From Microcella alkalica (GTDB taxonomy: Bacteria > Actinomycetota > Actinomycetes > Actinomycetales > Microbacteriaceae), in assembly GCF_014137945.1 (NCBI RefSeq), contig NZ_JACGWX010000001.1:620001-684000 (forward strand): a stretch of 64,000 nt of DNA. Reading direction: 5' to 3'. This document shows, piece by piece, positions 15,799 to 25,393 of the stretch. Positions within the stretch are counted from its first letter, which is position 1. Every line of letters starts with the position of its first letter. The position numbers were made by a program, and so were the translations under genes. Below the pieces are notes generated by a model. The model was not told the origin of the DNA. It did not search any database and worked only from the letters and a program-made list of their open reading frames with translations.

Positions 15799-15851
15799 CG
15801 CAACTACCACCGGAGAATCGAGGCGGTAGCACCACCAGCAGCACGACCTTG

Positions 15852-15922
15852 GGCGATTGGCGCAGCGGTAGCGCGCTTCCCTGACACGGAAGAGGTCACT
15901 GGTTCGATCCCAGTATCGCCCA
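15852..15922 (+). tRNA. tRNA-Val(GAC), integration site of the island
   Basis: Acceptor GGGCGAT / ATCGCCC, anticodon loop CTGACAC (GAC), T arm GGTTCGATCC. The 3' end, from the T arm on, is duplicated at 25373-25393, showing that a mobile element integrated here and restored the gene end. The base after the discriminator region reads ACGA and not ACCA, so CCA is no longer encoded; the displaced original end at 25393 still reads ACCA. Confidence 0.95.
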
Positions 15923-15923
15923 C
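15903..15923 (+). other. attL core of the island
   Basis: A 21-bp sequence covering the 3' end of tRNA-Val(GAC), repeated perfectly and in the same orientation at 25373-25393. The pair bounds about 9.5 kb that contains an integrase gene next to the right copy, so these are read as attL and attR of a tRNA-targeting mobile element. Confidence 0.93.
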
Positions 15924-15927
15924 GAAG

Positions 15928-15953
15928 AAACCCCCGGAAATCCGGGGGTTTTC
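15928..15953 (+). terminator. rho-independent terminator after the tRNA genes
   Basis: Stem CCCCCGGA / TCCGGGGG with a 2-base AA loop centre, preceded by AAA and followed by TTTT. It lies just inside the island end and would stop transcripts leaving the tRNA cluster. Confidence 0.85.
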
Positions 15954-15970
15954 TGCTTGAACGGGGGCGG

Positions 15971-15990
15971 CGTGCAACATCCGTGCAATA
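15971..15990 (+). repeat. tandem CGTGCAA motifs near attL, candidate integrase arm sites
   Basis: CGTGCAACAT at 15971 and CGTGCAATA at 15982 form a direct repeat with 11-bp spacing. The same motif pair occurs at the other end (25222 and 25232, 10-bp spacing). Paired short direct repeats flanking the core site are typical of tyrosine-integrase arm-type binding sites. The rest of 15954-16092 shows no gene. Confidence 0.55.
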
Positions 15991-16092
15991 CCGGATGAGG
16001 ACTCACCGCACTCCCATGCCAAGTAGGGGAACTTGGTCGTATAGTTAGTAACGGTTACAGCAAGGGTTTGAGCATGGGGGAAGGTGAAGACA

Positions 16093-16284
16093 ATGGCATC
16101 GGAAGCACTCGGAGGCTCTTATGTCCTCACCAATGAGGGCGCAGAGCAGCTAGCAGCGCTGGCCGCAGAGTCGAGCGCGCCTGTCTCTTCCCCCGGTTTC
16201 GCTTCTCGGAGCTATGACTCACTTTCGGTGGGCACCCGGTTGAGCGTGCTTGAGTCCCTGGTTCGTCACCGCACCGCTTCCTGA
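16093..16284 (+). CDS. small protein, 63 residues, partner of the GNAT-like gene
   Basis: I do not recognise the family. The ATG at 16093 is chosen because GGGGGAAGG lies 8 bases upstream; a GTG at 16084 falls on that ribosome site. It begins MASEALGGSYVLTNEGAEQL, is hydrophilic, and ends in a short basic helix (RLSVLESLVRHRTAS). It lies 3 bp upstream of the GNAT-like gene on the same strand, so the two are probably cotranslated. Position and size would suit an antitoxin or an accessory subunit; nothing in the sequence proves either. It is the first gene inside attL, a common cargo position. Confidence 0.6.
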   Translation: MASEALGGSYVLTNEGAEQLAALAAESSAPVSSPGFASRSYDSLSVGTRLSVLESLVRHRTAS

Positions 16285-16287
16285 TCC

Positions 16288-16893
16288 TTGGCAGAGGACC
16301 GAAGCGGGTTGCTTCCGTATGAAGTGTTCGCGCTCGGTGACATTGACCCGGAACAGTTTCCGGTCACTCGCGGGCTGATCGATCAGAGCCTCGCCAACTT
16401 CGCATGCGAACGGTCAGAGCACCTTCAACGCTTCGCGCGCGAAACCGTGACCCGATTCGAGAAGCATGGGCACAGCAGAACTTACGTCCTGTCAACTCCG
16501 ACAGAGGACGGCGGGCTCGACGTCGCCGGGTTCTTCACAATCGGCATGACTTCGCTCGACCTTTCCCAGGCAAGTAAGTCGACGAGGGCGAAGCTGATGG
16601 GCGATGTGACTATGGACGTTACGGGCGCCTACTGCATCGCGGAGCTCGCACGTTCGGATAAGTACGACTCCGCTCAATTGCCTGGGTCGATCATCCTGGA
16701 CGAGGCAAAGCAGGTCATTCGACGAGCTCGTGCCCTGGTTGCCGGAAGGTTCCTAGTCGTGGACGCGCAAGAGGTCGTGTTCACGCAGCTTTACGAACCG
16801 AACGGCTTCAGACGAATCGCTGTTGCTCAGCCGCCGCGCGGCATGGAGGATCGTGACTTCGTCACGGCCTGCGCAGTGATCCGCGACTGGTAA
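16288..16893 (+). CDS. GNAT-like acetyltransferase-fold protein
   Basis: 201 residues from a TTG start 3 bp after the preceding stop; no ribosome site is seen, which points to coupling. The order of elements suggests a Gcn5-related N-acetyltransferase fold: a central strand LDVAGFFTIGMTSLDL (about 78-93), a strand GAYCIAELARSDKYDSAQ (113-130), an acyl-CoA-loop-like PGSIILDEAKQVIRRARAL helix, and the C-terminal FLVVDAQEVVFTQLYEPNGFRRI (155-177), like the usual family motif B. Substrate unknown. With the small upstream gene it could be a toxin-antitoxin or defence cargo of the island; that is inference. Confidence 0.6.
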   Translation: MAEDRSGLLPYEVFALGDIDPEQFPVTRGLIDQSLANFACERSEHLQRFARETVTRFEKHGHSRTYVLSTPTEDGGLDVAGFFTIGMTSLDLSQASKSTRAKLMGDVTMDVTGAYCIAELARSDKYDSAQLPGSIILDEAKQVIRRARALVAGRFLVVDAQEVVFTQLYEPNGFRRIAVAQPPRGMEDRDFVTACAVIRDW

Positions 16894-17005
16894 CGCAGAA
16901 AAGCGGGCGAGCTGATCCGAAAACCGACCCGAACCGGCGCTTCCGCCCCCTTTCGCTGCGAGCACCACTCGCGACCATGGAGGTCAACCGGATGTAGACA
17001 GCCAC

Positions 17006-17391
17006 CTACATCCGCGCAAGAAGCTCGGTCTTCTTCGCGGCGAACTCCTCTTCCGTGAGGACACCAGCATCCCGAAGACTCGCAAGCTTTTCTAGTTGAG
17101 CTGCCACGTCGACGAGCGGCGCAGCTACCGCAGCTACCACTGGCTCCGCCGGCGCAAGCTGGCCGTCCAAGGGCCGACCCAAAATCAGCCGAGTGAGAGT
17201 GTCCTGCACGGTCTTCGCTTCAGCGTGCGAAACGCGGAAATCGACTGTGTTGCCCGCCGTGATGACCGACACACGAGAATTGAGCATCCCATCCCGCGCG
17301 GTCGTCACCGACGTAATCGACTTGATTGGGATCATCTCGGAGCCCGCCTTGCCGTTCTTCACGCCGGTGGCAAGCATTGAGAGCCCCACGG
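17006..17391 (-). pseudogene. SHOCT-domain protein, 5' end replaced by an IS21-type end
   Basis: The remaining frame encodes a PH-like domain (GSEMIPIKSITSVTTARDG, SVITAGNTVDFRV) followed by a C-terminal SHOCT motif (LEKLASLRDAGVLTEEEFAAKKTELLARM). SHOCT motifs are short oligomerisation modules in many bacterial proteins of unknown role. The normal N-terminus stops at about 17391, where the left end of an IS21-like element begins. The open frame continues through the element end to a GTG at 17464, so a hybrid protein of 152 residues could still be made. The 112 bp between this gene and the GNAT-like gene hold nothing recognised. Confidence 0.75.
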
Positions 17392-17602
17392 TGTCGACGA
17401 CGCTCGAAAACTGGACAGTAACGACGCTCGAAAAGTGAACACTCAACGATTGGAGAGTGATCACTTTGGAAGACTGGGCATTGATCAGGAGGCTCGCTGC
17501 GGAGGGCGTGCCTAAGGCGCGGATTGCCGAGCGGTTGGCGGTGTCGCGGACGACGGTGGTGAAGGCGGTGAACTCGGACGCGCCGCCACGGTATGTTCGG
17601 GC
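17392..17602 (+). mobile_element. IS21-family left-end remnant
   Basis: Begins TGTCGACGACGCTCG, with a 14-bp direct repeat ACGACGCTCGAAAA at 17397-17410 and 17421-17434, like the multiple terminal repeats of IS21-type elements, followed by the start of an istA gene at 17457. The element is cut at 17602/17603 by the IS3-like element, and no istA remainder or istB is found on the far side, so the rest has been lost. Confidence 0.75.
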
Positions 17603-17632
17603 TGTCGCGCGTCAGAATGTTTGGCAGGGGTA
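17457..17632 (+). pseudogene. istA: istA transposase fragment (IS21 family), truncated by IS insertion
   Basis: Starts GTG and encodes about 58 codons: EDWALIRRLAAEGVPKARIA, then AERLAVSRTTVVKAVNSDAP and PPRYVR, the helix-turn-helix N-terminus of IstA. Codons after about 17602 belong to the invading element and run to a TAG at 17632. The full protein would be about 400-500 residues, with a DDE domain that is absent here. Its start codon is part of the palindrome GTGATCAC (17457-17464), which also supplies the start of the hybrid SHOCT frame on the other strand. Confidence 0.8.
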
Positions 17633-17675
17633 GTTAGTTGCTGATGCAACGCCCCAGCTGAAAGGTCTGAATGTC

Positions 17676-17993
17676 ATGAGTCGTCCCCCCACGATCCCCG
17701 CGGAGAAGAAGCTCCGCATCGTGTTGTCCGTGCTGCAGGGCGAGATCACGATCGCCGAGGCAGCCCGCCGCGAGAAGGTCTCCGAGCAAGCGATCGGGAA
17801 CTGGAAGCGCCAGTTCCTCGAGGGCGGCAAGGCTGGGATCGAGGCGGGCAAGTCCAAGCCCTCGACCCGGGAGCAGCAACTCGAGGACGAGGTCGCCGAG
17901 CTCACCCAGGCTCTGGGTGAGGCAGCGGTTGAGATCCGCGTCTGGAAGAAGAGCGCCGAGGGCCGCTTGGGCCCTTCGAGGACCTCGAGGTGA
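17676..17993 (+). CDS. IS3-type transposase OrfA (helix-turn-helix subunit)
   Basis: 105 residues. The N-terminal half is a transposase helix-turn-helix (EKKLRIVLSVLQGEITIAEA, EKVSEQAIGNWKRQFLEGG) that binds the element ends; the C-terminal half is a leucine-zipper-like coil (QLEDEVAELTQALGEAAVEI) used for multimerisation. The stop overlaps the start of orfB as GTGA, so OrfB is made by coupled reinitiation or a frameshift fusion. The ATG at 17676 is preceded by AAAGG. Confidence 0.88.
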   Translation: MSRPPTIPAEKKLRIVLSVLQGEITIAEAARREKVSEQAIGNWKRQFLEGGKAGIEAGKSKPSTREQQLEDEVAELTQALGEAAVEIRVWKKSAEGRLGPSRTSR

Positions 17994-18940
17994 TCCGCGT
18001 CGAGGCGGGCATGTCGACTTCGAGGTTCTGCCAGCTGATCGACATGCCCGAACGCACCTGGCGGCGCTGGCAGGCCAAAGCGAAGCAGTCCCGACCGCCG
18101 AAGGGCCCGTGGCCGCAGCCGGCGAGGGAGGCGGCCCGCGAGCTCGCCACGAAACACGCCTTGGCGCATCCGGCGTGGGGTCATCGGAAGATCTGGGCGA
18201 TGACGCGGCATGACGGTCATAAGGTGTCGCAGGCGACTGTGCTGCGGCTGCTGCGCGATGACGGGCTGATCCTGCCGTCCGAGTACCAGAGGCAGCGCCG
18301 CCAGCTCGCGGCGGATCGCAAGGCCGCGTTCGCGAGGAACCCGACGGGGCCCAATCAGGTGTGGCAGCTGGACTTCAGCGAGTTCGAGACCACGACCGGT
18401 GGCACCTGGCGGATCGCCGGGTGCCGGGACTGGTTCTCCAAGGTCGAGCATCCGTTCCACGTGTCGCCGACAGCGAATCAGCACGACGCGATCGCGGCGA
18501 TAGAGCTCGCCTTGGTCGATTACGAAGCGATGTTCGGGCACCCGCTCGTCGACACCTGCCCTATCGATCCCGAGACCGGTGAGCTGCTGCCGGTGGTGAC
18601 GATCGTGACGGACAACGGCGGCCCGTTCCGGTCGCTGAATTTCGAGCTGTTCATCATGCGCCACCCCGAGCTACGTCACGTCCGCACCCGAGTGAGATCA
18701 CCGGGTCAGAACGGGTCACGCGAACGCGGATTCGGAACATTGAAATACGAGCGGCTGTTCCTCGACGACATCCCCGACGCGCTCACCCTCGTCGAACGCG
18801 CAGAGGACTACCGCATCGAGTACAACACCGAACGTCCTCACGAAGCGATCGCCTGGAACCGGCCGATCGACGTGCACCTCGGCCTGGCCGACCCCACCAT
18901 CCCCAACTTCGAAATCGAAGAAACCCTGCCAACTACTTGA
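17990..18940 (+). CDS. IS3-type transposase OrfB (DDE integrase catalytic subunit)
   Basis: 316 residues with an rve-type DDE catalytic core. The acidic residues are Asp in WQLDFSEFETTTGG, Asp in TIVTDNGGPFRS, and Glu in NGSRERGFGTLKYERLF. An HTH_21-like segment (HPAWGHRKIWAMTRHDGHKV) precedes the core, as in IS3 OrfB. The C-terminal YNTERPHEAIAWNRP matches the family. The frame is intact, so the element may still be active. The gene overlaps the right inverted repeat at its stop. Confidence 0.9.
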   Translation: MIRVEAGMSTSRFCQLIDMPERTWRRWQAKAKQSRPPKGPWPQPAREAARELATKHALAHPAWGHRKIWAMTRHDGHKVSQATVLRLLRDDGLILPSEYQRQRRQLAADRKAAFARNPTGPNQVWQLDFSEFETTTGGTWRIAGCRDWFSKVEHPFHVSPTANQHDAIAAIELALVDYEAMFGHPLVDTCPIDPETGELLPVVTIVTDNGGPFRSLNFELFIMRHPELRHVRTRVRSPGQNGSRERGFGTLKYERLFLDDIPDALTLVERAEDYRIEYNTERPHEAIAWNRPIDVHLGLADPTIPNFEIEETLPTT

Positions 18941-18949
18941 CGCGGGACA

Positions 18950-19147
18950 ACGCAGTGCGATCGCCAAATGCGTTTGATAGCCGAGCGCGTAGCTGAGGAT
19001 CGCGACCGCATCGGGTCGGTTCGTCAGGTGAAATACGGCGATGTTCTCGGCGTCCTCGGGATGCTCGAGGAGCTGCACGACCATCGCGGCGGCAATCGCG
19101 TATGCGTCGCGCGCATCCGGTTTCCGGTGGAACAGGTGCCGGATCAC
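18950..19147 (-). pseudogene. island gene truncated at its 3' end by the IS3-like element
   Basis: Starts with GTG in a GTGA overlap with the stop of the upstream gene, so it was the next cistron of the leftward island operon. Sixty-six codons remain (MIRHLFHRKPDARDAYAIAA, then VVQLLEHPEDAENIAVFHLT and NRPDAVAILSYALG) before the sequence enters the insertion element. The frame continues into the element to 18716, giving an artificial tail. Family not recognised. Confidence 0.7.
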
Positions 19148-19686
19148 TGCGGCGGCTGATACGCGAGCTCGCGCGTCAGATCGAACGGGGTATCCCGGAA
19201 CGCCGTCAGCGCGGTGAGGTCCCGCAACGCTTCCGCCTTGCTCGGATCGGACTTCTCGAACGCCTCGAGAGTTCCGAGGAACCGCATCGCCACTGCTCGA
19301 CGCACCACCGCTGTTGCGAGCCCCTCATCGCGGGTCACCTTCGCCCGCTCGAACAAGCGCAGAGCCTCAGCATCCGACTCGAGCTGTTCGGCACGGTCCG
19401 CAGCGTCGCGAATCGCGATCACATCACTGCTGGAGGACACTTCACCGAACACGCGTCGCTCCAGCGACAGGATCCGTTCGTCGACGATCTTCTCCTCCTG
19501 GGCGCGGAGAGCTTTGATCGCGGCTATCGCCTTCTCGCGGTCGCCGCGAATCTGGTCATCCTGCCCCTCGACGCTCAGCAGAGCATTCGCGCGAACCGCG
19601 TTCAACAGCGTCCAAACGTTGTCTCGATGTTTCTGCGCCTGACTCCGCAACGCGTCGAGCTGCTTATCAATATCTGTGAGTGCCAT
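19144..19686 (-). CDS. coiled-coil hypothetical protein of the island operon
   Basis: 180 residues from the ATG at 19686, chosen because AAGGAGA lies 7 bases upstream; the frame is open further but the gene before it ends at 19688. The product is almost entirely alpha-helical and charged (MALTDIDKQLDALRSQAQKH, KALRAQEEKIVDERILSLER, SDAEALRLFERAKVTRD), with heptad-like spacing and no membrane segment. Family not recognised; such proteins are common in phage and satellite operons. It is coupled to its neighbours on both sides. Confidence 0.7.
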   Translation of the reverse strand: MALTDIDKQLDALRSQAQKHRDNVWTLLNAVRANALLSVEGQDDQIRGDREKAIAAIKALRAQEEKIVDERILSLERRVFGEVSSSSDVIAIRDAADRAEQLESDAEALRLFERAKVTRDEGLATAVVRRAVAMRFLGTLEAFEKSDPSKAEALRDLTALTAFRDTPFDLTRELAYQPPQ

Positions 19687-19687
19687 A

Positions 19688-20086
19688 TCATTGTCTCCTT
19701 GACCGCCAGTGGGCGAGTTGTTCCCGCGAAATCCGATAACGTCCGTCCGGGCATTCCGCAACCAGATCGCCGCGCCCAATTGCTGCGCGGACTCCTCGGT
19801 CTGTGATTCCCGTTATGGCTGCCACTTGTGTGGTTGACAGCCGGTTCAATTGTGGGTCGAGTTCCGGTTTAGCCGCTTCACTGGTTCCTGTTACGGAAAC
19901 ACGCCACTGTAAATCTGCTCTCCGCATGGCAAGCAGCACCGCGTCAACCTCGGGGTCAAATCCGCGATGCGCTAAACGGAATTCGTCCAATTTGGCGTGA
20001 CGGTTCAGCACGGCGGCGACTCTCGCCGGCATGATGACGACCATCCCGTCGGCGTGCACGTAATGCTCCGGGGTGCGGTTCACCAT
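19688..20086 (-). CDS. HTH-domain protein of the island operon
   Basis: 132 residues. The C-terminal half carries a MerR/excisionase-like helix-turn-helix (LSTTQVAAITGITDRGVRAA, IGRGDLVAECPDGRYRISRE), so DNA binding is expected; the N-terminal half (EHYVHADGMVVIMPARVAAVLN) is not recognised. The start overlaps the preceding small gene by 7 bp, and only one base separates its stop from the next ATG. It may regulate the island or act in excision; a second excisionase-like gene lies at 22855. Confidence 0.72.
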   Translation of the reverse strand: MVNRTPEHYVHADGMVVIMPARVAAVLNRHAKLDEFRLAHRGFDPEVDAVLLAMRRADLQWRVSVTGTSEAAKPELDPQLNRLSTTQVAAITGITDRGVRAAIGRGDLVAECPDGRYRISREQLAHWRSRRQ

Positions 20087-20271
20087 GAGCGCACCGCATA
20101 CGTTGCGCGGAACTGGTCGATCTTTCGAGCCTGCTCACGCTCCCGCCTACGCTCCTCGTCCCGGTTGCGCCACTTCGCCCACTGCTGGTGAAGATCCGCC
20201 GCCATCGCATCGAACGAGCTCCGCTCGAACCTCACTGCCCGCGTTTGTTCCGAATGGGTTCTACGAGGCAT
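20080..20271 (-). CDS. small charged hypothetical protein, 63 residues
   Basis: The ATG at 20271 has AGGAG 7 bases upstream and overlaps the preceding mini-gene by 11 bp. The protein is rich in Arg, Glu and aromatic residues (FDAMAADLHQQWAKWRNRDE, then ERRREREQARKIDQFRATYA) and probably forms one long helix. Family not recognised. Base composition here is clearly less GC-rich than the chromosome. Confidence 0.62.
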   Translation of the reverse strand: MPRRTHSEQTRAVRFERSSFDAMAADLHQQWAKWRNRDEERRREREQARKIDQFRATYAVRSW

Positions 20272-20401
20272 TGGGCGGCTCCTCAATGTGCAGGAGGCTG
20301 TATTCACGATTCAATCCCTCACAAGCAACACAGCGCGGCAAGAAAACTTCGCCATAATGCCGATAACAGAGAGCACCTTTGTCATTGTGTCCACCAAGCA
20401 T
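20261..20401 (-). CDS. 46-residue CxxC mini-protein, putative zinc-binding
   Basis: A short frame with a textbook ribosome site: GGAGGG five bases before an ATG that overlaps the previous stop as TGATG. The sequence MLGGHNDKGALCYRHYGEVF continues with LPRCVACEGLN, giving Cys-x2-His followed by Cys-x2-Cys, a possible small zinc site. Its end overlaps the next ATG by 11 bp. The tight stop-start packing on both sides supports it as a real gene of the operon. No family recognised. Confidence 0.68.
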   Translation of the reverse strand: MLGGHNDKGALCYRHYGEVFLPRCVACEGLNREYSLLHIEEPPNAS

Positions 20402-20757
20402 CAGTGCCCTCCTCTCATGCGAAACTCGATACTCCGTAAATGGATGTCCAATAGGCGCGCCTGCGTTTGCAGGTTGCTTTGTTGCGCCTCTAAATCGCGT
20501 CCGCGTTGTTTCACGTAGGCGACTTCGATAGCGGCGCGTTCCTTTGCCGCTCTGAAACGAGACGAGTCGATAACGGCTTGCTGTTTGCGTTCCTCGATTG
20601 ATCCAGTTGCGCGCTTGTATGCGTTCGCGTACTCCGTGGCGAATGACTCCGCTTCGGTGACTGCCCGTAGCTCGAGCTCGCGAACCTCGGTCGCGTTCCG
20701 AGCAATCTGCACCCGTATGGCGTCGAGCTCAGTTATCAGGGCGTCAGGCGTCTTCAT
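20401..20757 (-). CDS. coiled-coil hypothetical protein, 118 residues
   Basis: The ATG at 20757 (MKTPDALITELDAIRVQIAR) overlaps the end of the WhiB-like gene by 14 bp. The product is strongly helical and charged (ATEVRELELRAVTEAESFAT, KQRGRDLEAQQSNLQTQARL) with coiled-coil character and no membrane segment. Its stop overlaps the ATG of the CxxC mini-gene. Family not recognised. Confidence 0.68.
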   Translation of the reverse strand: MKTPDALITELDAIRVQIARNATEVRELELRAVTEAESFATEYANAYKRATGSIEERKQQAVIDSSRFRAAKERAAIEVAYVKQRGRDLEAQQSNLQTQARLLDIHLRSIEFRMRGGH

Positions 20758-20989
20758 TCCCGCCCCTTCCGTTGCTCCGTTTCCCCGCCCACACACCCGC
20801 AGCAGGGCGCGCAACCTTCCGGTACTGCTGGCACTCCACGAACAGTGGGCACGGCTCGCACACGGCAGCACAGGCCCGCACGTCAGCGGGTGACAGATCA
20901 TCAGCGGTAAACAAATCGAGCCCTTCACATGCGGGCCGATGCATCTCCATCGCCTCGACGAGCAGCTCCCACGCTTCCGAGGCCCTCAC
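20744..20989 (-). CDS. WhiB-like iron-sulfur transcription factor
   Basis: 81 residues with the WhiB signature: Cys21, then Cys44-x2-Cys47-x5-Cys53 (CEPCPLFVEC) as [4Fe-4S] ligands, and a GVWAGK turn (65-70) matching the GVWGG motif, followed by a basic tail. Cys40 is an extra cysteine. Wbl proteins are actinobacterial regulators that usually act through the principal sigma factor; actinophages carry them too. The GTG start overlaps the ATPase stop as GTGA, so it is part of the same operon and is the most likely regulator of the island or of host genes after induction. Confidence 0.85.
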   Translation of the reverse strand: MRASEAWELLVEAMEMHRPACEGLDLFTADDLSPADVRACAAVCEPCPLFVECQQYRKVARPAAGVWAGKRSNGRGGNEDA

Positions 20990-22188
20990 GCGGCATCACA
21001 TCCGGGATGCACGAACCCATGAGGCTCGTTCGACGGATGAGACTCGAGCTTGCAGACCGGGCAGATACCCGAACGCAACGCCTTCGCAACAGCTACAGGG
21101 GGTGTTGTGTCTGTTATGTGTGTTGCAAACTCCGGAAACGCAACAGTCGCAACACTTGCCACAGGGGGTGTGCGCGTTGCGTTGCTGTTGCGAACTGGCC
21201 CATAGCGGCCACGCTCGAGCCGTTCCACCCGTCCGCTGCTCGCCAGACGGCTCAGATACGTGCGCGCCTGGTTGATCGGCAGTTCGAGAGCGTCGGACAC
21301 TTCCTCCGCGCGAACGCCTTCCGGGTGCCCCTTGATGAACTCGACGAGCTCCGCCGACCGTTCCCCGAGCACCGTCTGATCGCGCCGCAGCAGATCTTGA
21401 ACCGTCACGCTCGAGTCGCCCAGCATGATCGCCCGTCCGACGAGGGTGGACTCACCGTCAGTAGTCGGCATCTCGACCGAATCCACCTGAAACGCCACAG
21501 ACGGCTTCACGGCGGAGTAGTTCGACTTCTCGACCGTCAGGATGCGTTCGTCCGTCTCGTCGTCCACAGCGAGCAGCAGCAGGCTCCGAGTGATATCGCG
21601 GAATGCATGCGAACCCGACACCTTGTCTGACGCGTTGCCGCCGCCCTTGTTGAAGTGGGCCACGCACACCACAGCGACGCCGAGCTCTGCCGCCATCGAT
21701 GCGAGCGGGTCAAGGTTCTTCCGCACGTCATCTAGCCGGTGCGAGTCACCCCGCATAAGACTGATGATCGGATCGACGATGAGCACCTTCGCGCCCGTCT
21801 CGATGAGCTGTTCACGGATCGCCTGCAAGTCATCCGCCAGCGACGGCGACGTGATCCAGTCGGAGTCCTCGTCGCTCACCGCAACGGACGACATGGAGAC
21901 GACGTAATCGAGATTCGCGCCCGCAGCTTTCAGCCGTGGAACGAGGACCGTGGAAGTGTCGTCCTCACCATTGATGAGCGCGACCACGACGGGCTTCCCG
22001 AATAGGTCGCCCTCGAGCGTCCCCTGAGTCCACCGTGCGATGAACCAAGCGAGAATCGTTGACTTCGCGATGCCGGCCATTCCGGCGAGCATCGTGATCG
22101 TTCCGAGCGGCACCTGATTGCGTGCCGCCCAGAGTTGCCGTCGCACTTCCACGGTGGACAGCGGCGTGACCAATAGACGCCGACTCAT
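20986..22188 (-). CDS. RepA/DnaB-type AAA ATPase, putative replication protein
   Basis: 400 residues from the ATG at 22188, in an ATGA overlap with the preceding gene. RecA-like (AAA_25/RepA type) core: Walker A GMAGIAKST at 36-44, with Ala in place of the usual Gly before Lys; Walker B KVLIVDPIISLM; a KVSGSHAFRDITRSLL segment typical of RepA-like helicases. A winged helix follows (HPEGVRAEEVSDALELPINQ), then a C-terminal Cys/His cluster (CPVCKLESHPSNEPHGFVHP, GC) that could bind zinc. It is expected to be the helicase or loader at the DnaA-box region about 1 kb upstream. Confidence 0.82.
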   Translation of the reverse strand: MSRRLLVTPLSTVEVRRQLWAARNQVPLGTITMLAGMAGIAKSTILAWFIARWTQGTLEGDLFGKPVVVALINGEDDTSTVLVPRLKAAGANLDYVVSMSSVAVSDEDSDWITSPSLADDLQAIREQLIETGAKVLIVDPIISLMRGDSHRLDDVRKNLDPLASMAAELGVAVVCVAHFNKGGGNASDKVSGSHAFRDITRSLLLLAVDDETDERILTVEKSNYSAVKPSVAFQVDSVEMPTTDGESTLVGRAIMLGDSSVTVQDLLRRDQTVLGERSAELVEFIKGHPEGVRAEEVSDALELPINQARTYLSRLASSGRVERLERGRYGPVRNSNATRTPPVASVATVAFPEFATHITDTTPPVAVAKALRSGICPVCKLESHPSNEPHGFVHPGCDAA

Positions 22189-22544
22189 GAGGCCACCGCC
22201 AAACGCCACAGCGCGAGCTCGGCCTCTGTATGCCACGGCGCGCGCGGATTGTTAGCCCGGTGATACCAGTAGTCCGCGAGGAACTCCGCGCGTGCCTGAG
22301 CGCTCGAGGGCGACTTCTCGCCGTGCGCATAGCCGAGCAGATAAAGGGACGCGATTGGGAAAGGAAGCTGCCAGAGATCCAACCGCCCGGATGCGATACC
22401 GTCGCAAACACTGTCGAGGTACTTACCGGCGCGTTCGCCCAATTCCAGGCGGCGACGGGTGTTCTCTGCGATATCATTGAGAGAACTCAGGCTGCCAGGC
22501 CGTTCGATTGCCCCGTCTCGTACGGGGTTTTCGTATGTCGTCAT
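22185..22544 (-). CDS. hypothetical protein, 119 residues, island operon
   Basis: Begins MTTYENPVRDGAIERPGSLS. The C-terminal half is helical with many aromatic residues (PFPIASLYLLGYAHGEKSPS, EFLADYWYHRANNPRAPWHT). No membrane segment or known motif. Overlaps both neighbours by 4 bp (ATGA), so it is translated with the ATPase gene. Composition suggests a compact globular helper protein, but the family is not recognised. Confidence 0.68.
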   Translation of the reverse strand: MTTYENPVRDGAIERPGSLSSLNDIAENTRRRLELGERAGKYLDSVCDGIASGRLDLWQLPFPIASLYLLGYAHGEKSPSSAQARAEFLADYWYHRANNPRAPWHTEAELALWRLAVAS

Positions 22545-22858
22545 CGAGCGCTCACCCGCTTATGGGCGTTGTCAATGCGCACGGCGGCGAGGGCAGCTGT
22601 CGGGTCGGCGTATCCACAGTGCGCAAACAGCTCGAACCCCTCCCAGGTTGCGGAGGCGTCCGCCCGGTCGACCCATGCGTCAATGACGCGTCGCACGTCT
22701 ACATCGCCCGGGCGGAGTTCATTGCGGATGATCCGCGTCATCTTGTTGTGACGGAAAGGCAGGCGAGCCCGCTCGAACTGCGTTGCGGCATAGCGGAGTA
22801 GCTCTTCGACCGATTGCTTGGTGTTTCCGGTCTGCGTGGAGTAGGTCGAGGCATTCAA
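22541..22858 (-). CDS. hypothetical protein, 105 residues, island operon
   Basis: Begins MNASTYSTQTGNTKQSVEEL. The centre is basic and helical (FERARLPFRHNKMTRIIRNE) and the end carries WVDRADASATWEGFELFAHC. Four-base ATGA overlaps on both sides. No family recognised; similar size and position are typical of early-operon genes of actinophages and satellites. Confidence 0.66.
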   Translation of the reverse strand: MNASTYSTQTGNTKQSVEELLRYAATQFERARLPFRHNKMTRIIRNELRPGDVDVRRVIDAWVDRADASATWEGFELFAHCGYADPTAALAAVRIDNAHKRVSAR

Positions 22859-23067
22859 GCGGCATCACCGCCCGTATAGCGCAGCGGCGTGCCGAGGCTG
22901 TCGAGGCTGTCGAGGTTCACGCGGATCGCGCGGGGTCCTACGCGTCGCGCTTCGATCTGACCGGCTGCGATGTAGCGGCGGATCGTCTTGACCGACAGAT
23001 CCCAGTGCTCGGCGGCGTCCTGGAGCGATCCCCAGGATGCTCGGGCGATGGACTGATGTTCGGGCAT
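22855..23067 (-). CDS. xis: excisionase-family HTH protein
   Basis: 70 residues. The single recognisable domain is a MerR-like winged helix of the excisionase/AlpA type: WGSLQDAAEHWDLSVKTIRR followed by YIAAGQIEARRVGPRAIRVN. Such proteins bend DNA at att sites to direct integrase towards excision, or act as early activators. It is the first gene of the leftward operon, next to the non-coding region with DnaA boxes, and overlaps the next gene by 4 bp. The symbol is a functional guess from family and position. Confidence 0.75.
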   Translation of the reverse strand: MPEHQSIARASWGSLQDAAEHWDLSVKTIRRYIAAGQIEARRVGPRAIRVNLDSLDSLGTPLRYTGGDAA

Positions 23068-23166
23068 CGTCTTTCCGTTCCCTGCTATTCAATGCAGAGA
23101 CTTCGGGTAGGACGTACTAGCCTGAACGTGTCTGCATCTTGCTTGGTTGGTAGGGCGTGGACTCTG

Positions 23167-23202
23167 CCCGCAGGTCGCGCCAACGGCCTGCGGGCTTTCT
23201 TT
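23167..23202 (+). terminator. hairpin with T-rich tail
   Basis: Stem CCCGCAGG / CCTGCGGG with the 12-base loop TCGCGCCAACGG, followed by CTTTCTTT on the plus strand. It reads as a plus-strand terminator although no plus-strand gene precedes it, so it might end an unrecognised small transcript or shield the origin from read-through. Its loop resembles that of the hairpin at 24006. Confidence 0.55.
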
Positions 23203-23271
23203 CTGGAAATGGCTTTCGCTGTTTCCACTTATGAGTATGCCTGTCCCTAGCGACACGAAACACGCGACACG

Positions 23272-23292
23272 TGTGGATAACGTTGTGGATAA
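23272..23292 (+). other. two DnaA boxes
   Basis: TGTGGATAA, the reverse complement of the consensus DnaA box TTATCCACA, occurs twice without mismatch at 23272-23280 and 23284-23292, 12 bp apart start to start. Two perfect boxes this close are unlikely by chance in GC-rich DNA and suggest host DnaA loading at an element origin. Confidence 0.72.
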
Positions 23293-23408
23293 CGGAATCC
23301 GGTACATAATGTCCAGAAATCTGTGCAGAAGTCGGCGGTAGAAGCCATTGCACGGGGGTACGCGAAAGGGGGCACCCATTACGGATGCCCCCTGAACGGT
23401 GCGGTTAG

Positions 23409-23975
23409 TTAGTTGACGGGCCGCAGGGTCGGTCGTGCCGTCAGCGTCGCGTGGAACGCCTCAGCCGCCCGCAGCGCTCGCACAATCCGCGTCACGTCAC
23501 CAGGCGTGAGGTTGCTCTGCTCGGCGTTCACGGCCAAGTCGGGCGCCTCCCCGGTGTTGTGCCACACGTACACGCTCGCGCTTCCGGTCGGCATGGCGAA
23601 ACGGTGGCAGTCGTGGTTGTCCTCGTCGAACTTCGCGACGAGCGTGTCGGACTCGTCCGGCGTGACCGGGGTTCCCTGCTCCGCGTCGACGACGTAGGAC
23701 AGCTGGTACAGCTCGTCCGCGAGATCGCGCATCTCACTGCCGGTGGTGGGCTTCACGTCCGTCTGCACGGAGTCACCGCCGAAGCAGACGACTACCTCGA
23801 GCGGGCCGATCTGCACGCCTTCGGGCGTGATTGAGTCCGCTCGAACGAGGTACACATCGTCTCCGGCACCGAAGTAGTAGACGATCGGGTTGCCGTCCTT
23901 GTCGATGCTCGAGTCGTCGTCGACCTTGACGGCCCACGAGGGCATGTTCGGGCGCGTAGTCTGGATCTCGTTCAT
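23409..23975 (-). CDS. hypothetical protein, 188 residues, near integrase
   Basis: The ATG at 23975 is chosen for AAGGAAGG 6 bases upstream. An acidic, soluble protein (MNEIQTTRPNMPSWAVKVDD, VYYFGAGDDVYLVRADSITP) with a beta-rich front half and a helical C-terminus (TPGDVTRIVRALRAAEAFHA). No motif recognised. It lies alone between the integrase gene and the DnaA-box region, on the same strand as both. Confidence 0.68.
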   Translation of the reverse strand: MNEIQTTRPNMPSWAVKVDDDSSIDKDGNPIVYYFGAGDDVYLVRADSITPEGVQIGPLEVVVCFGGDSVQTDVKPTTGSEMRDLADELYQLSYVVDAEQGTPVTPDESDTLVAKFDEDNHDCHRFAMPTGSASVYVWHNTGEAPDLAVNAEQSNLTPGDVTRIVRALRAAEAFHATLTARPTLRPVN

Positions 23976-24005
23976 GATGTGCCTTCCTTGGTTTTTCATG
24001 GACTG

Positions 24006-24033
24006 CCCTCGAGCCGTTACAGCGACTCGGGGG
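24006..24033. terminator. hairpin between integrase gene and the 188-residue gene
   Basis: Stem CCCTCGAG / CTCGGGGG with the 12-base loop CCGTTACAGCGA, followed on the plus strand by CGTTTTC. On the minus strand it lies 25 bp after the integrase stop. The loop, read on the minus strand, matches that of the hairpin at 23167 at 9 of 12 positions although the stems differ. Confidence 0.5.
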
Positions 24034-24057
24034 CGTTTTCGTGCCGCCAGTTGACGG

Positions 24058-25209
24058 CTACGTGTTCGCCAGCTCGCTCATTCGCTTCGCTAGCTCCGCA
24101 TCACGGCCAGCCGTGTGCTGATACTTCATCGCCGCAGCGACAGTCGAGTGCCCCATGCGTTCCTGCAACTCGCGCAGCGTCGCGCCCGCCAGAGCCGCTT
24201 TTGTGGCCCCGTAGTGGCGGAGTGCGTGCCAGGGCATGTCGGGTCGCCCAGCCGCCTCACGTGCCGGGTAGAACGACTTTGCGAGGGTGGACTGCGCCAG
24301 GTGCGTAACCCCGTCAGATGCGGGGAACAGCAGAGCGCTGGGGGAGTCGGGAACGAACTTCGCCAGGTGAGCCATGACAGCCGCGTTCACGTGGGGAGGT
24401 AGGACAATCTGGCGTACGCCCGCGAGGGACTTGGTGCCGCCGACGACGAACCCCTGACCGGGCACATGCGTCACCGCGCGTGAGATGTTGACGATGATCG
24501 TTTCGCCGTCCTCGAGGATCGTCAGATCCTTCCGGCGCAGCTCTGTCAGTTCCCCGTACCGGCATCCCGCCCACGCCGCGATCAGAACCGCGGCTCGGTA
24601 CTTCTCAGCGATCCGCTCCACGATCGTCGCAAGCTCGAGGGCGGTCGGGGGGTCAACTTTCTTCCCCGTCGACGCCATGTGCCCGCCGCGTATCTGGCAC
24701 GGGTTCAAACCGATCCGCCCGTCCTCTACCGCGGTCGCCATGATCGCCTTGAGTAGTCCATAGGAGCGCGCGGCCTGAGTCTTCGTCCCGGCTTCTATCT
24801 GCTCGGAGTACCAGTCGCGAACCTTGGCGGGAGTGAGGGCACTCAACCGCATGTCTGTGAGCGGCGCGAGGGTGGTTCGGAGAAGCCGTTCGTACTCGGA
24901 GCGTGTGCGGGGGCGCAGGTGGTCGCCGTGACGGTTCGTGCGGGTGTTCAGCCATGTAGTCGCGTAGTCGCCGAGCGTGCCCTTGGACTTGCCCGCGACG
25001 ATGCGGGCGGCTTCGTGTGACTGCCACTTGCCCTCAACGATCTTGGAGCGCTGCGTCGACAGCCAGCCTCGAGCGTCCGTGAGGTTGTCGAACGTGTGGG
25101 GAGCCGTGTGACGTACTCCGTCCGGGCCGACGTAGGAGGCTTGCACGCGGCCGGAGGGGAGCCGGCGAACAGCACCGAACGACTCGCGCGCCTTCCGCTT
25201 CGCAGCCAT
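24058..25209 (-). CDS. int: tyrosine recombinase, site-specific integrase of the island
   Basis: 383 residues from the ATG at 25209 (GGGAG five bases upstream). The N-terminal arm-binding domain (SGRVQASYVGPDGVRHTAPH) and a SAM-like core-binding domain (about 75-165) precede the catalytic domain. Catalytic residues visible: Arg217 in GCRYGELTELRR, a likely Lys260 in the TK beta-turn, His328 and Arg331 in HALRHYGAT, His354 in RMGHSTV, and nucleophile Tyr363 in AAAMKYQH. It lies 160 bp from attR and should catalyse insertion at the tRNA-Val 3' end. The frame is intact. Confidence 0.95.
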   Translation of the reverse strand: MAAKRKARESFGAVRRLPSGRVQASYVGPDGVRHTAPHTFDNLTDARGWLSTQRSKIVEGKWQSHEAARIVAGKSKGTLGDYATTWLNTRTNRHGDHLRPRTRSEYERLLRTTLAPLTDMRLSALTPAKVRDWYSEQIEAGTKTQAARSYGLLKAIMATAVEDGRIGLNPCQIRGGHMASTGKKVDPPTALELATIVERIAEKYRAAVLIAAWAGCRYGELTELRRKDLTILEDGETIIVNISRAVTHVPGQGFVVGGTKSLAGVRQIVLPPHVNAAVMAHLAKFVPDSPSALLFPASDGVTHLAQSTLAKSFYPAREAAGRPDMPWHALRHYGATKAALAGATLRELQERMGHSTVAAAMKYQHTAGRDAELAKRMSELANT

Positions 25210-25221
25210 GTCGCTCCCGTC

Positions 25222-25240
25222 CGTGCAATATCGTGCAATA
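25222..25240 (+). repeat. tandem CGTGCAATA motifs near attR, candidate integrase arm sites
   Basis: CGTGCAATA at 25222-25230 and again at 25232-25240, directly upstream of the integrase gene. The same motif pair lies inside the left end at 15971-15990. The position could also let integrase autoregulate. Nothing else is seen in 25241-25372. Confidence 0.55.
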
Positions 25241-25372
25241 TCTGGTGTCCACTTGCGTCCATTCCTGAACAACAGTGACACTAGAGCACGCAGGCAGTTT
25301 CCGCTAGATGTAGGCTCACATCCGTACAGAACGTGCGGAATCGTGGACACCTACCAGTGACGCGAATACAGT

Positions 25373-25393
25373 TTCGATCCCAGTATCGCCCAC
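25373..25393 (+). other. attR core of the island (displaced tRNA-Val 3' end)
   Basis: Perfect 21-bp copy of 15903-15923. The sequence that follows (ACCACCAGA) still encodes a CCA after the discriminator base, so this is the original 3' end of the tRNA gene, pushed aside by integration. It is only a fragment and not a functional tRNA. Confidence 0.92.

What the first reader, a model, noticed from the sequence alone, without database searches (positions are those of the whole stretch)
15903..25393. A 9.5-kb integrative island with its own replication module but no visible transfer or virion genes
A 21-bp direct repeat of the tRNA-Val 3' end brackets an integrase, an excisionase-like gene, a RepA-type ATPase, perfect DnaA boxes, a WhiB-like regulator and many tiny overlapping genes. 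No capsid, terminase, relaxase or FtsK-like gene is seen. This combination is what a phage satellite or a mobilisable replicating island looks like. Actinobacterial satellites are poorly catalogued, so this may be an undescribed family. A decayed prophage is the main alternative.
Basis: partly seen in the sequence, partly recalled or inferred. Interest (0 to 1): 0.85.

Follow-up and report, generated by a model that had tools for sequence, protein, structure and literature searches.

The report
Broken phage satellite with tail-gene sibling
This stretch of bacterial DNA is most likely a small parasite of bacterial viruses that has lost part of itself, and a close relative in the same genome carries an unusual gene that in viruses sets tail length, so such parasites may shape the tails as well as the shells of the virus particles they steal.

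Summary
The island is real: an exact 21-bp repeat of the tRNA-Val 3' end (15903-15923, 25373-25393), integrase, Xis-like gene, RepA-type ATPase, two DnaA boxes, a WhiB-like gene; the site looks empty in three genomes of the genus. A second island in this genome (tRNA-Leu, 11,977 bp) is 99-100% identical next to both sides of that insertion and holds 3,242 bp there that the window lacks: a tape measure protein (TMP, 662 aa) and a small terminase (TerS). So the window island is best read as a phage satellite that lost packaging and tail genes.

Of 55 loci with a profile hit, window and sibling included, 23 carry TMP, 7 capsid, 25 neither, none both. TMP and TerS of IMG/VR relatives show purifying selection; two such contigs wrap at about 10.2 kb, as circles or concatemers would. 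One TerS and one slot protein searched found nothing in 50,697 phage records; distant TerS relatives do occur in phage-like regions.

Satellites, including capsid-bearing actinobacterial candidates, are known; ones with their own TMP were not found in seven literature searches. Packaging, helper and any tail effect are untested.

The parts
15851..15923 (+). tRNA-Val (gac), attachment gene
   Evidence: ARAGORN; Rfam tRNA
15903..15923 (+). att repeat, tRNA side (21 bp)
   Evidence: exact repeat; the same 21-mer is the att repeat of L148 in a genome of the same genus
16288..16893 (+). acetyltransferase-like gene, probable cargo
   Evidence: phrog_1758 acetyltransferase 1.4e-19; no Pfam match
17006..17392 (-). 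SHOCT-domain gene, 5' end cut off at about 17392
   Evidence: PF09851 2.5e-10; longer copy L051:6241-6879; 99% nt identity ends at 17392
17393..17601 (.). fragment of an insertion sequence end (IS21-like; family name recalled, not tested)
   Evidence: matches C12:3197-3411 and C2:422632-422843
17602..18949 (+). complete IS3-like insertion sequence (family name inferred from its domains), two transposase ORFs
   Evidence: HTH_Tnp_1 and rve/rve_3 domains; three further full-length copies and one interrupted copy in the genome
18950..19147 (-). 90-aa gene of the sibling, 3' end cut off at 18950; 3,242 bp with TMP and TerS missing here relative to the sibling
19144..19686 (-). slot protein cc180, predicted all-helical
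   Evidence: 23 profile hits in the pool, 20 distinct loci; no PHROGs match better than E 0.03 among 16 members; one member searched in phage records, no match; AlphaFold pLDDT 91.6
19688..20086 (-). HTH protein (132 aa)
   Evidence: PF12728 1.5e-6
20080..20307 (-). small ORF (75 aa)
   Evidence: nearly identical region in sibling
20261..20401 (-). small ORF (46 aa)
   Evidence: homologues in L054 and L068, 53%
20401..20757 (-). small ORF (118 aa); identity with the sibling drops from about here on
20744..20989 (-). WhiB-like regulator
   Evidence: PF02467 1.4e-5; phrog_9926 1.2e-7
20986..22188 (-). RepA-type AAA ATPase (helicase-like); no primase domain matched in Pfam
   Evidence: PF13481 2.3e-20, phrog_10729 4e-31; 36% to the C-terminal part of the Squash DNA primase
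22185..22544 (-). small ORF (119 aa)
   Evidence: 29% to ORFs in L055 and L057
22541..22858 (-). small ORF (105 aa)
   Evidence: relative in L068, 43%
22855..23067 (-). Xis-like HTH
   Evidence: PF12728 8e-8; phrog_66 excisionase 4e-5
23230..23330 (.). candidate origin: two DnaA boxes at 23272-23280 and 23284-23292
23409..23975 (-). unknown gene (188 aa)
   Evidence: no Pfam or PADLOC match
24058..25209 (-). tyrosine integrase
   Evidence: 61% and 67% to the integrases of L053 and L054 at the same tRNA
25373..25393 (+). att repeat, distal side

Best explanation
The island is an integrated phage satellite of a modular actinobacterial family, crippled by insertion sequences. Inferred cycle of intact members: a helper phage infects; Int and Xis excise the element; the RepA-type ATPase starts replication at the DnaA-box origin; the satellite's own TerS turns the helper's large terminase onto satellite concatemers; a slot protein (cc180 here) adapts the helper capsid, or the satellite brings capsid plus scaffold instead; and in many members a satellite tape measure protein enters the tails. 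Shown from sequence: site, repeat, empty sites, gene content, sibling, collinear difference from the sibling, purifying selection on TMP and TerS in a group of IMG/VR relatives, wrapped contigs. Inferred: that the window ancestor had TMP and TerS, helper dependence, packaging, the roles of cc180 and TMP. The window copy, lacking TerS and TMP, may still integrate, excise and replicate, but would need its sibling or a permissive helper to be packaged.
For: Sibling with TMP (phrog_10780 2.7e-53, TMP_3 7e-17, tape_meas_nterm 2e-8) and TerS (phrog_1496 2e-17; NCBIfam sm_term_P27 only 0.009, under its cut-off); 99-100% identity over window 18950-20350 and 99% over 16899-17392, on both sides of the missing block. 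Int 61-67%, RepA 50-67% and Xis 47-55% to L052-L054. A TMP-type element beside the same tRNA-Val, same orientation (L145). TerS relatives at 24 genome loci and 11 IMG/VR loci. att repeats define 7.6-12.0 kb elements at 17 loci including the window; with two wrapped contigs 19 sizes, mean 9,475, SD 1,035 (eight rows left out are named in the report). IMG/VR wraps of 10,178 bp (3,400 bp exact repeat) and 10,239 bp (100 bp). dN/dS in IMG/VR pairs: TMP 0.11 and 0.20, TerS 0.06, RepA 0.04. AbiD-like genes in or beside two relatives.
Against: No induction, particle or transfer data. No helper found: no PF04860 portal in the own genome, and phrog_2 gave only E 3.6e-5 in a search that also rang in 11 of 14 control genomes. 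The window island itself has no TerS or virion gene, and no repressor was recognised in it. 25 of the 55 counted loci have neither TMP nor capsid, and five annotated loci, among them L148 at the same tRNA-Val site, had no profile hit at all. cc180 has no structural match that supports a capsid role (Foldseek best E 0.32 in PDB, 0.24 in BFVD). Distant TerS relatives sit in phage-like regions (L105, L147).
Confidence: 0.8

Rival explanations
1. Decayed prophage: remnants of an ordinary temperate phage that by chance kept integration and replication genes.
For: TMP, TerS, capsid and scaffold are phage genes; the window copy is broken by insertion sequences; two distant TerS relatives lie in phage-like regions (L105, L147).
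Against: Similar short gene sets recur in many loci, with att repeats where found; TMP and TerS in IMG/VR relatives are under purifying selection (dN/dS 0.06-0.20); the sibling's TerS and one cc180 member have no match in 50,697 phage records; three elements with repeats at the same tRNA-Val site are 7.6-10.1 kb.
Confidence: 0.1
2. Integrative mobilisable element or small integrating plasmid that moves by conjugation.
For: Own replication ATPase and DnaA boxes; weak ATPase relatives on 6 of 72,556 plasmid records, none covering 80% of the query.
Against: No relaxase or FtsK-type family in 18 ORFs of the interval; relatives carry packaging and virion genes.
Confidence: 0.04
3. The family is a satellite group, but the satellite TMP is a weapon that jams helper tail assembly, not a part of satellite virions.
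For: In the listed rows the N-terminal 37-48% of two satellite TMPs is close to phage TMPs (45-59% identity) while no phage record is matched over 80% of the length, as a decoy might be; interference with tail assembly is a known defence (PMC11364771, abstract start in listings only).
Against: Lengths of 573-1293 aa (one TMP split in two ORFs aside), comparable with four phage TMPs of 931-2012 aa; purifying selection over the whole aligned protein in two pairs.
Confidence: 0.25

Closest known systems
Phage-inducible chromosomal islands (PICIs; PMC6092414, passages read)
   Same: Integrase, replication module, no lytic genes recognised, small size; some members carry TerS or a capsid homologue.
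   Different: Accepted sizes 7.6-12.0 kb here; TMP in 23 of 55 counted loci; no Stl-like repressor recognised in the window island; induction and packaging untested.
Capsid-forming PICIs (as described in PMC10690885, passages read)
   Same: Own capsid in 7 of 55 loci, 6 of these 7 with the scaffold family.
   Different: cf-PICIs are described there as encoding portal, protease, connectors and both terminase subunits; I recognised no such genes beside capsid and scaffold in the gene lists of L057, L077, L087 and L092. L067 (capsid, scaffold, and a weakly terminase-like ORF, NCBIfam 4e-4) comes nearest. The window island has none.
Candidate PICIs of Mycobacterium (PMC10654092, section 9 read)
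   Same: Integrase at tRNA genes, helicase, terminase, scaffold and capsid in an actinobacterial host; mobilisation not shown.
   Different: They were found by integrase plus major capsid protein, a rule that TMP-type elements would fail; 'tape measure' has 0 occurrences in that paper's main text.
Streptomyces satellites MulchRoom and MiniFlayer (PMC10690885, passages read)
   Same: Actinobacterial satellites of tailed phages.
   Different: Full capsid and packaging set, no obvious replicase; here a replication ATPase, TerS and few or no capsid genes. 'Tape measure' has 0 occurrences in that paper.

Membership tests
PICI | Integrase plus replication module plus master regulator | tested here: inconclusive
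   Integrase and ATPase met; no XRE-type master repressor recognised in the window island, a repressor-like gene present in the sibling
PICI | No phage structural or lytic genes | tested here: inconclusive
   Met by the broken window copy (18 ORFs), not by the sibling, which has a TMP
PICI | att site never occupied by prophages | tested here: inconclusive
   Other elements seen at the tRNA-Val site are small, but prophages were not searched for systematically
PICI | Size about 12-15 kb | tested here: not met
   9,470 bp here; about 11.2 kb before the loss by my arithmetic; 19 accepted sizes 7.6-12.0 kb, eight left-out repeat pairs up to 15.9 kb
PICI | Induced by helper phage and packaged in particles | not testable with these tools
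   -
cf-PICI | Capsid, portal, protease, connectors, TerL and TerS | tested here: not met
   None in the window island (18 ORFs)
Mycobacterium candidate PICI | Integrase and major capsid protein in one region | tested here: not met
   No capsid in the window island; the capsid profile does not hit the sibling. Met by L057, L077, L087, L092
Phage satellite (broad: not a phage, with genes or signals favouring packaging in phage particles; PMC11389934, passages) | Packaging-directing gene | tested here: inconclusive
   TerS profile in 42 of the 55 counted loci, the sibling included, 44 with L074 and L077 found by tblastn; absent from the window copy
Conjugative or mobilisable element | Relaxase or FtsK-type translocase | tested here: not met
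   18 ORFs of the interval, Pfam

The most novel reading that the evidence does not exclude
A modular family of actinobacterial satellites chooses which half of the helper particle to take over: one class brings its own capsid and scaffold, the other its own tape measure protein, so that satellite virions carry tails whose length or injection property the satellite dictates. The helical slot proteins (cc180 and unrelated ones) would be capsid-resizing factors replacing capsid plus scaffold. The window island would then be a second-order parasite, depending on its sibling's TerS and TMP as well as on a helper phage.
Probability: 0.35. Interest if true: 0.82.

Novelty: new variant of a known kind. 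Interest (0 to 1): 0.62.

Why it matters
The satellites described in the passages I read resize or replace the capsid or redirect packaging. A satellite that supplies the tail ruler would extend that piracy to the tail, and would make it testable whether a foreign tape measure alone sets tail length or DNA delivery of a chimeric particle. Searches keyed on capsid genes would miss the TMP class, so actinobacterial satellites may be undercounted. The window also shows how a satellite can decay: insertion sequences sit where the packaging genes are in a sibling of almost identical neighbouring sequence.

Tried and rejected
Portal and large-terminase searches for a resident helper: PF04860 no match; phrog_2 only E 3.6e-5, judged non-specific because it rang in 11 of 14 controls. 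Other portal families were not tried.

tblastn of 31 virion proteins from five phages against 58 loci plus the window island hit only L105, but it also missed L147, where large ORFs and a capsid-profile hit follow TerS, the large terminase of L058 (PF03237) and the capsids found by profile; it is a weak negative, and I rely on gene lists and ORF sizes instead.

Fold searches with the cc180 model (PDB and BFVD) and with a second slot protein (ccB, pLDDT 76, PDB only) gave nothing at E <= 0.001. hhalign found no relation between cc180 and the other slot proteins, scaffold or capsid, so 'one slot, unrelated proteins' rests on position only.

An early profile for the sibling's TMP found only itself; the TMP count comes from two profiles (TMPa, TMPb). 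L078's 769-aa protein resembles the sibling's TMP only over 75 residues and was not counted. RNA families: only the tRNA above the family threshold, plus one sub-threshold match. The 12-kb record MT836167 with a TMP at its end was fetched and not analysed further.
Full report
WHAT IS THERE. The window lies at G000:C1:620001-684000 of an unnamed 2.74-Mb genome. A tRNA-Val(gac) gene at 15851-15923 ends in a 21-bp sequence repeated exactly at 25373-25393. Between the copies GC is 62.4% against 70.7% outside. The joined flanks match in one piece over bases 4-399 in G318 (87%) and G074 (86%) and over 14-351 in G137 (77%), which is the empty site in 3 of 25 other genomes of the genus; most of the others matched on the tRNA side only. 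G309, of the same genus, has a 7,640-bp element with the same 21-bp repeat in the same tRNA (L148).

GENES. Integrase, Xis-like HTH, RepA-type AAA ATPase, WhiB-like protein and a second HTH protein are supported by Pfam and PHROGs. In phages the ATPase matches 83 of 50,697 records, best the primase/helicases of Microbacterium phages such as Squash (36%), a protein of 660 aa of which the island protein matches the C-terminal part. Two exact DnaA boxes 12 bp apart lie between 23068 and 23408. An acetyltransferase-like gene lies near the tRNA. Integrase boxes and the ATPase Walker A motif are present (motifs recalled).

THE MISSED INSERTION. 17602-18949 is a complete IS3-like element with three further full-length copies in this genome and one interrupted copy; about 17393-17601 is the end of another element (IS21-like, name recalled), also found elsewhere. 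Island genes are cut on both sides: a SHOCT-domain gene at 17392 and a small gene at 18950.

THE SIBLING. The same genome holds a second island at tRNA-Leu with a 31-bp repeat and 11,977 bp (L051). Its integrase and ATPase differ from the window's, but it is 99% identical to window 16899-17392 and 99-100% to window 18950-20350 (bins of 200 bp), after which identity falls. Between these two blocks it has 3,242 bp that the window lacks. They hold a 662-aa tape measure protein (phrog_10780 2.7e-53; Pfam TMP_3 7e-17; NCBIfam tape_meas_nterm 2e-8) and a 114-aa small terminase (phrog_1496 2e-17; no Pfam match; NCBIfam P27 model only E 0.009, under its cut-off). No other TerS of this family was found in the genome. 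The simplest history is that the two islands shared this block recently and the window copy then lost it when insertion sequences arrived. That the window ancestor held TMP and TerS is inferred from collinearity.

RELATIVES. The ATPase has relatives in 19 of 299 genomes of the family at E <= 0.001, our own included. TerS has relatives in 43 of 396 genomes of the order (at least one of the weaker ones, L147, is phage-like) and cc180 in only 7 of 396. A TerS scan returned 24 loci from the genome collection and 11 from IMG/VR. In one search profile models were run on the proteins of the annotated loci. I dropped eight loci as duplicates or chimeric (L073, L081, L093, L099, L130, L131, L137, L143) and six as phages, remnants or too distant (L083, L084, L088, L094, L105, L147). 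Five further annotated loci had no profile hit and are not in the count (L060, L062, L063, L064, L148). Among the remaining 55, window and sibling included (9 of the 55 are IMG/VR contigs of unknown host), TMP occurs in 23, capsid in 7, neither in 25; TerS in 42 by profile, 44 with L074 and L077 (tblastn). TMP and capsid never occur together (Fisher p 0.034), nor do a slot-protein family and capsid (0 of 27 against 7 of 28, p 0.010). These tests ignore relatedness, the sample mixes loci found by ATPase and by TerS, and my simple gene caller missed genes, so they are suggestive only. TMP and slot families are not associated (p 0.79).

EXAMPLES. L145 is a TMP-type element beside the same tRNA-Val, in the orientation of the window, cut by its contig end. 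L053 and L054 use that tRNA too (9,526 and 10,120 bp); L054 has a TMP but no TerS by profile, L053 a TerS but no TMP. L077, L087 and L092 have scaffold, capsid and TerS (L087 capsid NCBIfam 3e-26). L058 has a large terminase (PF03237 3e-10) and a TMP; L067 a capsid, scaffold and a weakly terminase-like ORF. L054 and L055 have AbiD-like genes in or beside them (PADLOC 4e-42 and 8e-47), which fits anti-phage cargo.

SIZES. Nineteen sizes (17 from att repeats, the window included, and two wrapped contigs) run from 7,640 to 11,977 bp, mean 9,475, SD 1,035. I left out eight further repeat pairs: L094 10,093 (distant host), L134 12,117, L091 12,504 and L093 13,826 (15 bp only), L073 15,264, L089 15,394, L085 15,821 and L079 15,897. 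Three of these (L073, L079, L085) start in tRNA 3' ends and may be true, larger or tandem elements, so the tight size range is not proved. For L052, L055, L056, L058 and L145 no repeat was found with the ranges used; L081, L082, L084 and L090 gave none, and L078 gave only unknown bases.

ACTIVITY. Two IMG/VR contigs repeat their own start: one at 10,178 bp over 3,400 identical bases, one at 10,239 bp over 100 bases, as expected of circles or head-to-tail concatemers; tandem copies in a chromosome or assembly effects are possible. In pairs of these IMG/VR contigs (L099-L103) dN/dS is 0.11 and 0.20 for TMP, 0.06 for TerS (two pairs), 0.04 for the ATPase and 0.19 for a slot protein. Window and sibling are too similar to test: cc180 has no synonymous difference, the HTH gene gives 0.67 on very few changes.

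TMP AND cc180. Satellite TMPs are 573-1293 aa (L082's split pieces aside), four phage TMPs 931, 1034, 1206 and 2012 aa. For the two satellite TMPs searched, the N-terminal 37-48% resembles phage TMPs (45-59% identity in the listed rows, among 1,245 and 372 matching records) and no phage record matches over 80% of the length. cc180 is predicted all-helical with high confidence (pLDDT 91.6), has no PHROGs match better than E 0.03 in 16 members, no match in 50,697 phage records (one member searched), and no significant fold match. Its position upstream of TerS, where other members carry scaffold and capsid, suggests a capsid-redirecting role; this is inference. The sibling's TerS has no match in the phage records at 1e-5, although its PHROG is a phage TerS family; the one capsid searched (L057) has a single weak match (28.8%).

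MECHANISM. See Best explanation. Shown: integration anatomy, gene content, difference from the sibling, conservation, selection in relatives. Inferred: loss, excision, replication, packaging by a helper's large terminase, roles of cc180 and TMP. The window copy is probably defective for packaging on its own.

LITERATURE. Seven searches of the held library. Read in part: PMC10654092 (passages and section 9), PMC10690885, PMC11389934, PMC10023795 and PMC6092414 (passages). PMC10023795 states that small actinobacterial prophage-like elements could be satellites and that experiments lag. I saw no description of a satellite with its own tape measure gene in those listings and passages; I did not open most listed papers, and subscription journals and preprints outside the library were not covered.

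VERDICT. An insertion-broken member of a modular actinobacterial phage-satellite family; new variant of a known kind. The interest lies in the TMP class revealed by the sibling more than in the window island itself.

Noticed in passing
L071:10807-13089: A satellite-like island of Arthrobacter cheniae carries a 760-aa protein with a polysaccharide lyase domain (PF14099 8.5e-18), perhaps a tail-borne depolymerase.
   Followed up: no
L055:7467-7730, L080:10321-10548, L078:10330-10548, L096:7698-7913 and others: A small basic protein starting MRRRR or similar (about 70-114 aa) follows or overlaps TerS in several relatives, by eye; a profile unites only some of them (5 hits incl. a duplicate). Possible packaging partner.
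   Followed up: partly
G311:C113:1-175, G313:C1:956244-956352, G235, G312: Several genomes of the genus show extra short copies of the tRNA-Val 3' end just after the tRNA, as if repeated integrations had left att scars.
   Followed up: no
L083:4662-4949: A TerS-like ORF in Mycobacterium sp. Marseille-P9652 on a stretch that also holds the tRNA-Gly/Cys/Val cluster, apparently a remnant.
   Followed up: no
L094:9962-11665: A Dehalococcoidia MAG has a related TerS next to a ClpP-like head maturation protease (NF045542 1.3e-50) in a 10.1-kb tRNA-bounded island: the plan may reach beyond Actinomycetota.
   Followed up: partly
L099, L101: IMG/VR contigs with two related but different element copies in tandem (89-95% identity), either tandem elements or assembly mixing.
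   Followed up: partly
L067:7513-8951: Two adjacent ORFs, one weakly like a large terminase (NCBIfam 4e-4), beside capsid and scaffold in a tRNA-Pro island.
   Followed up: no
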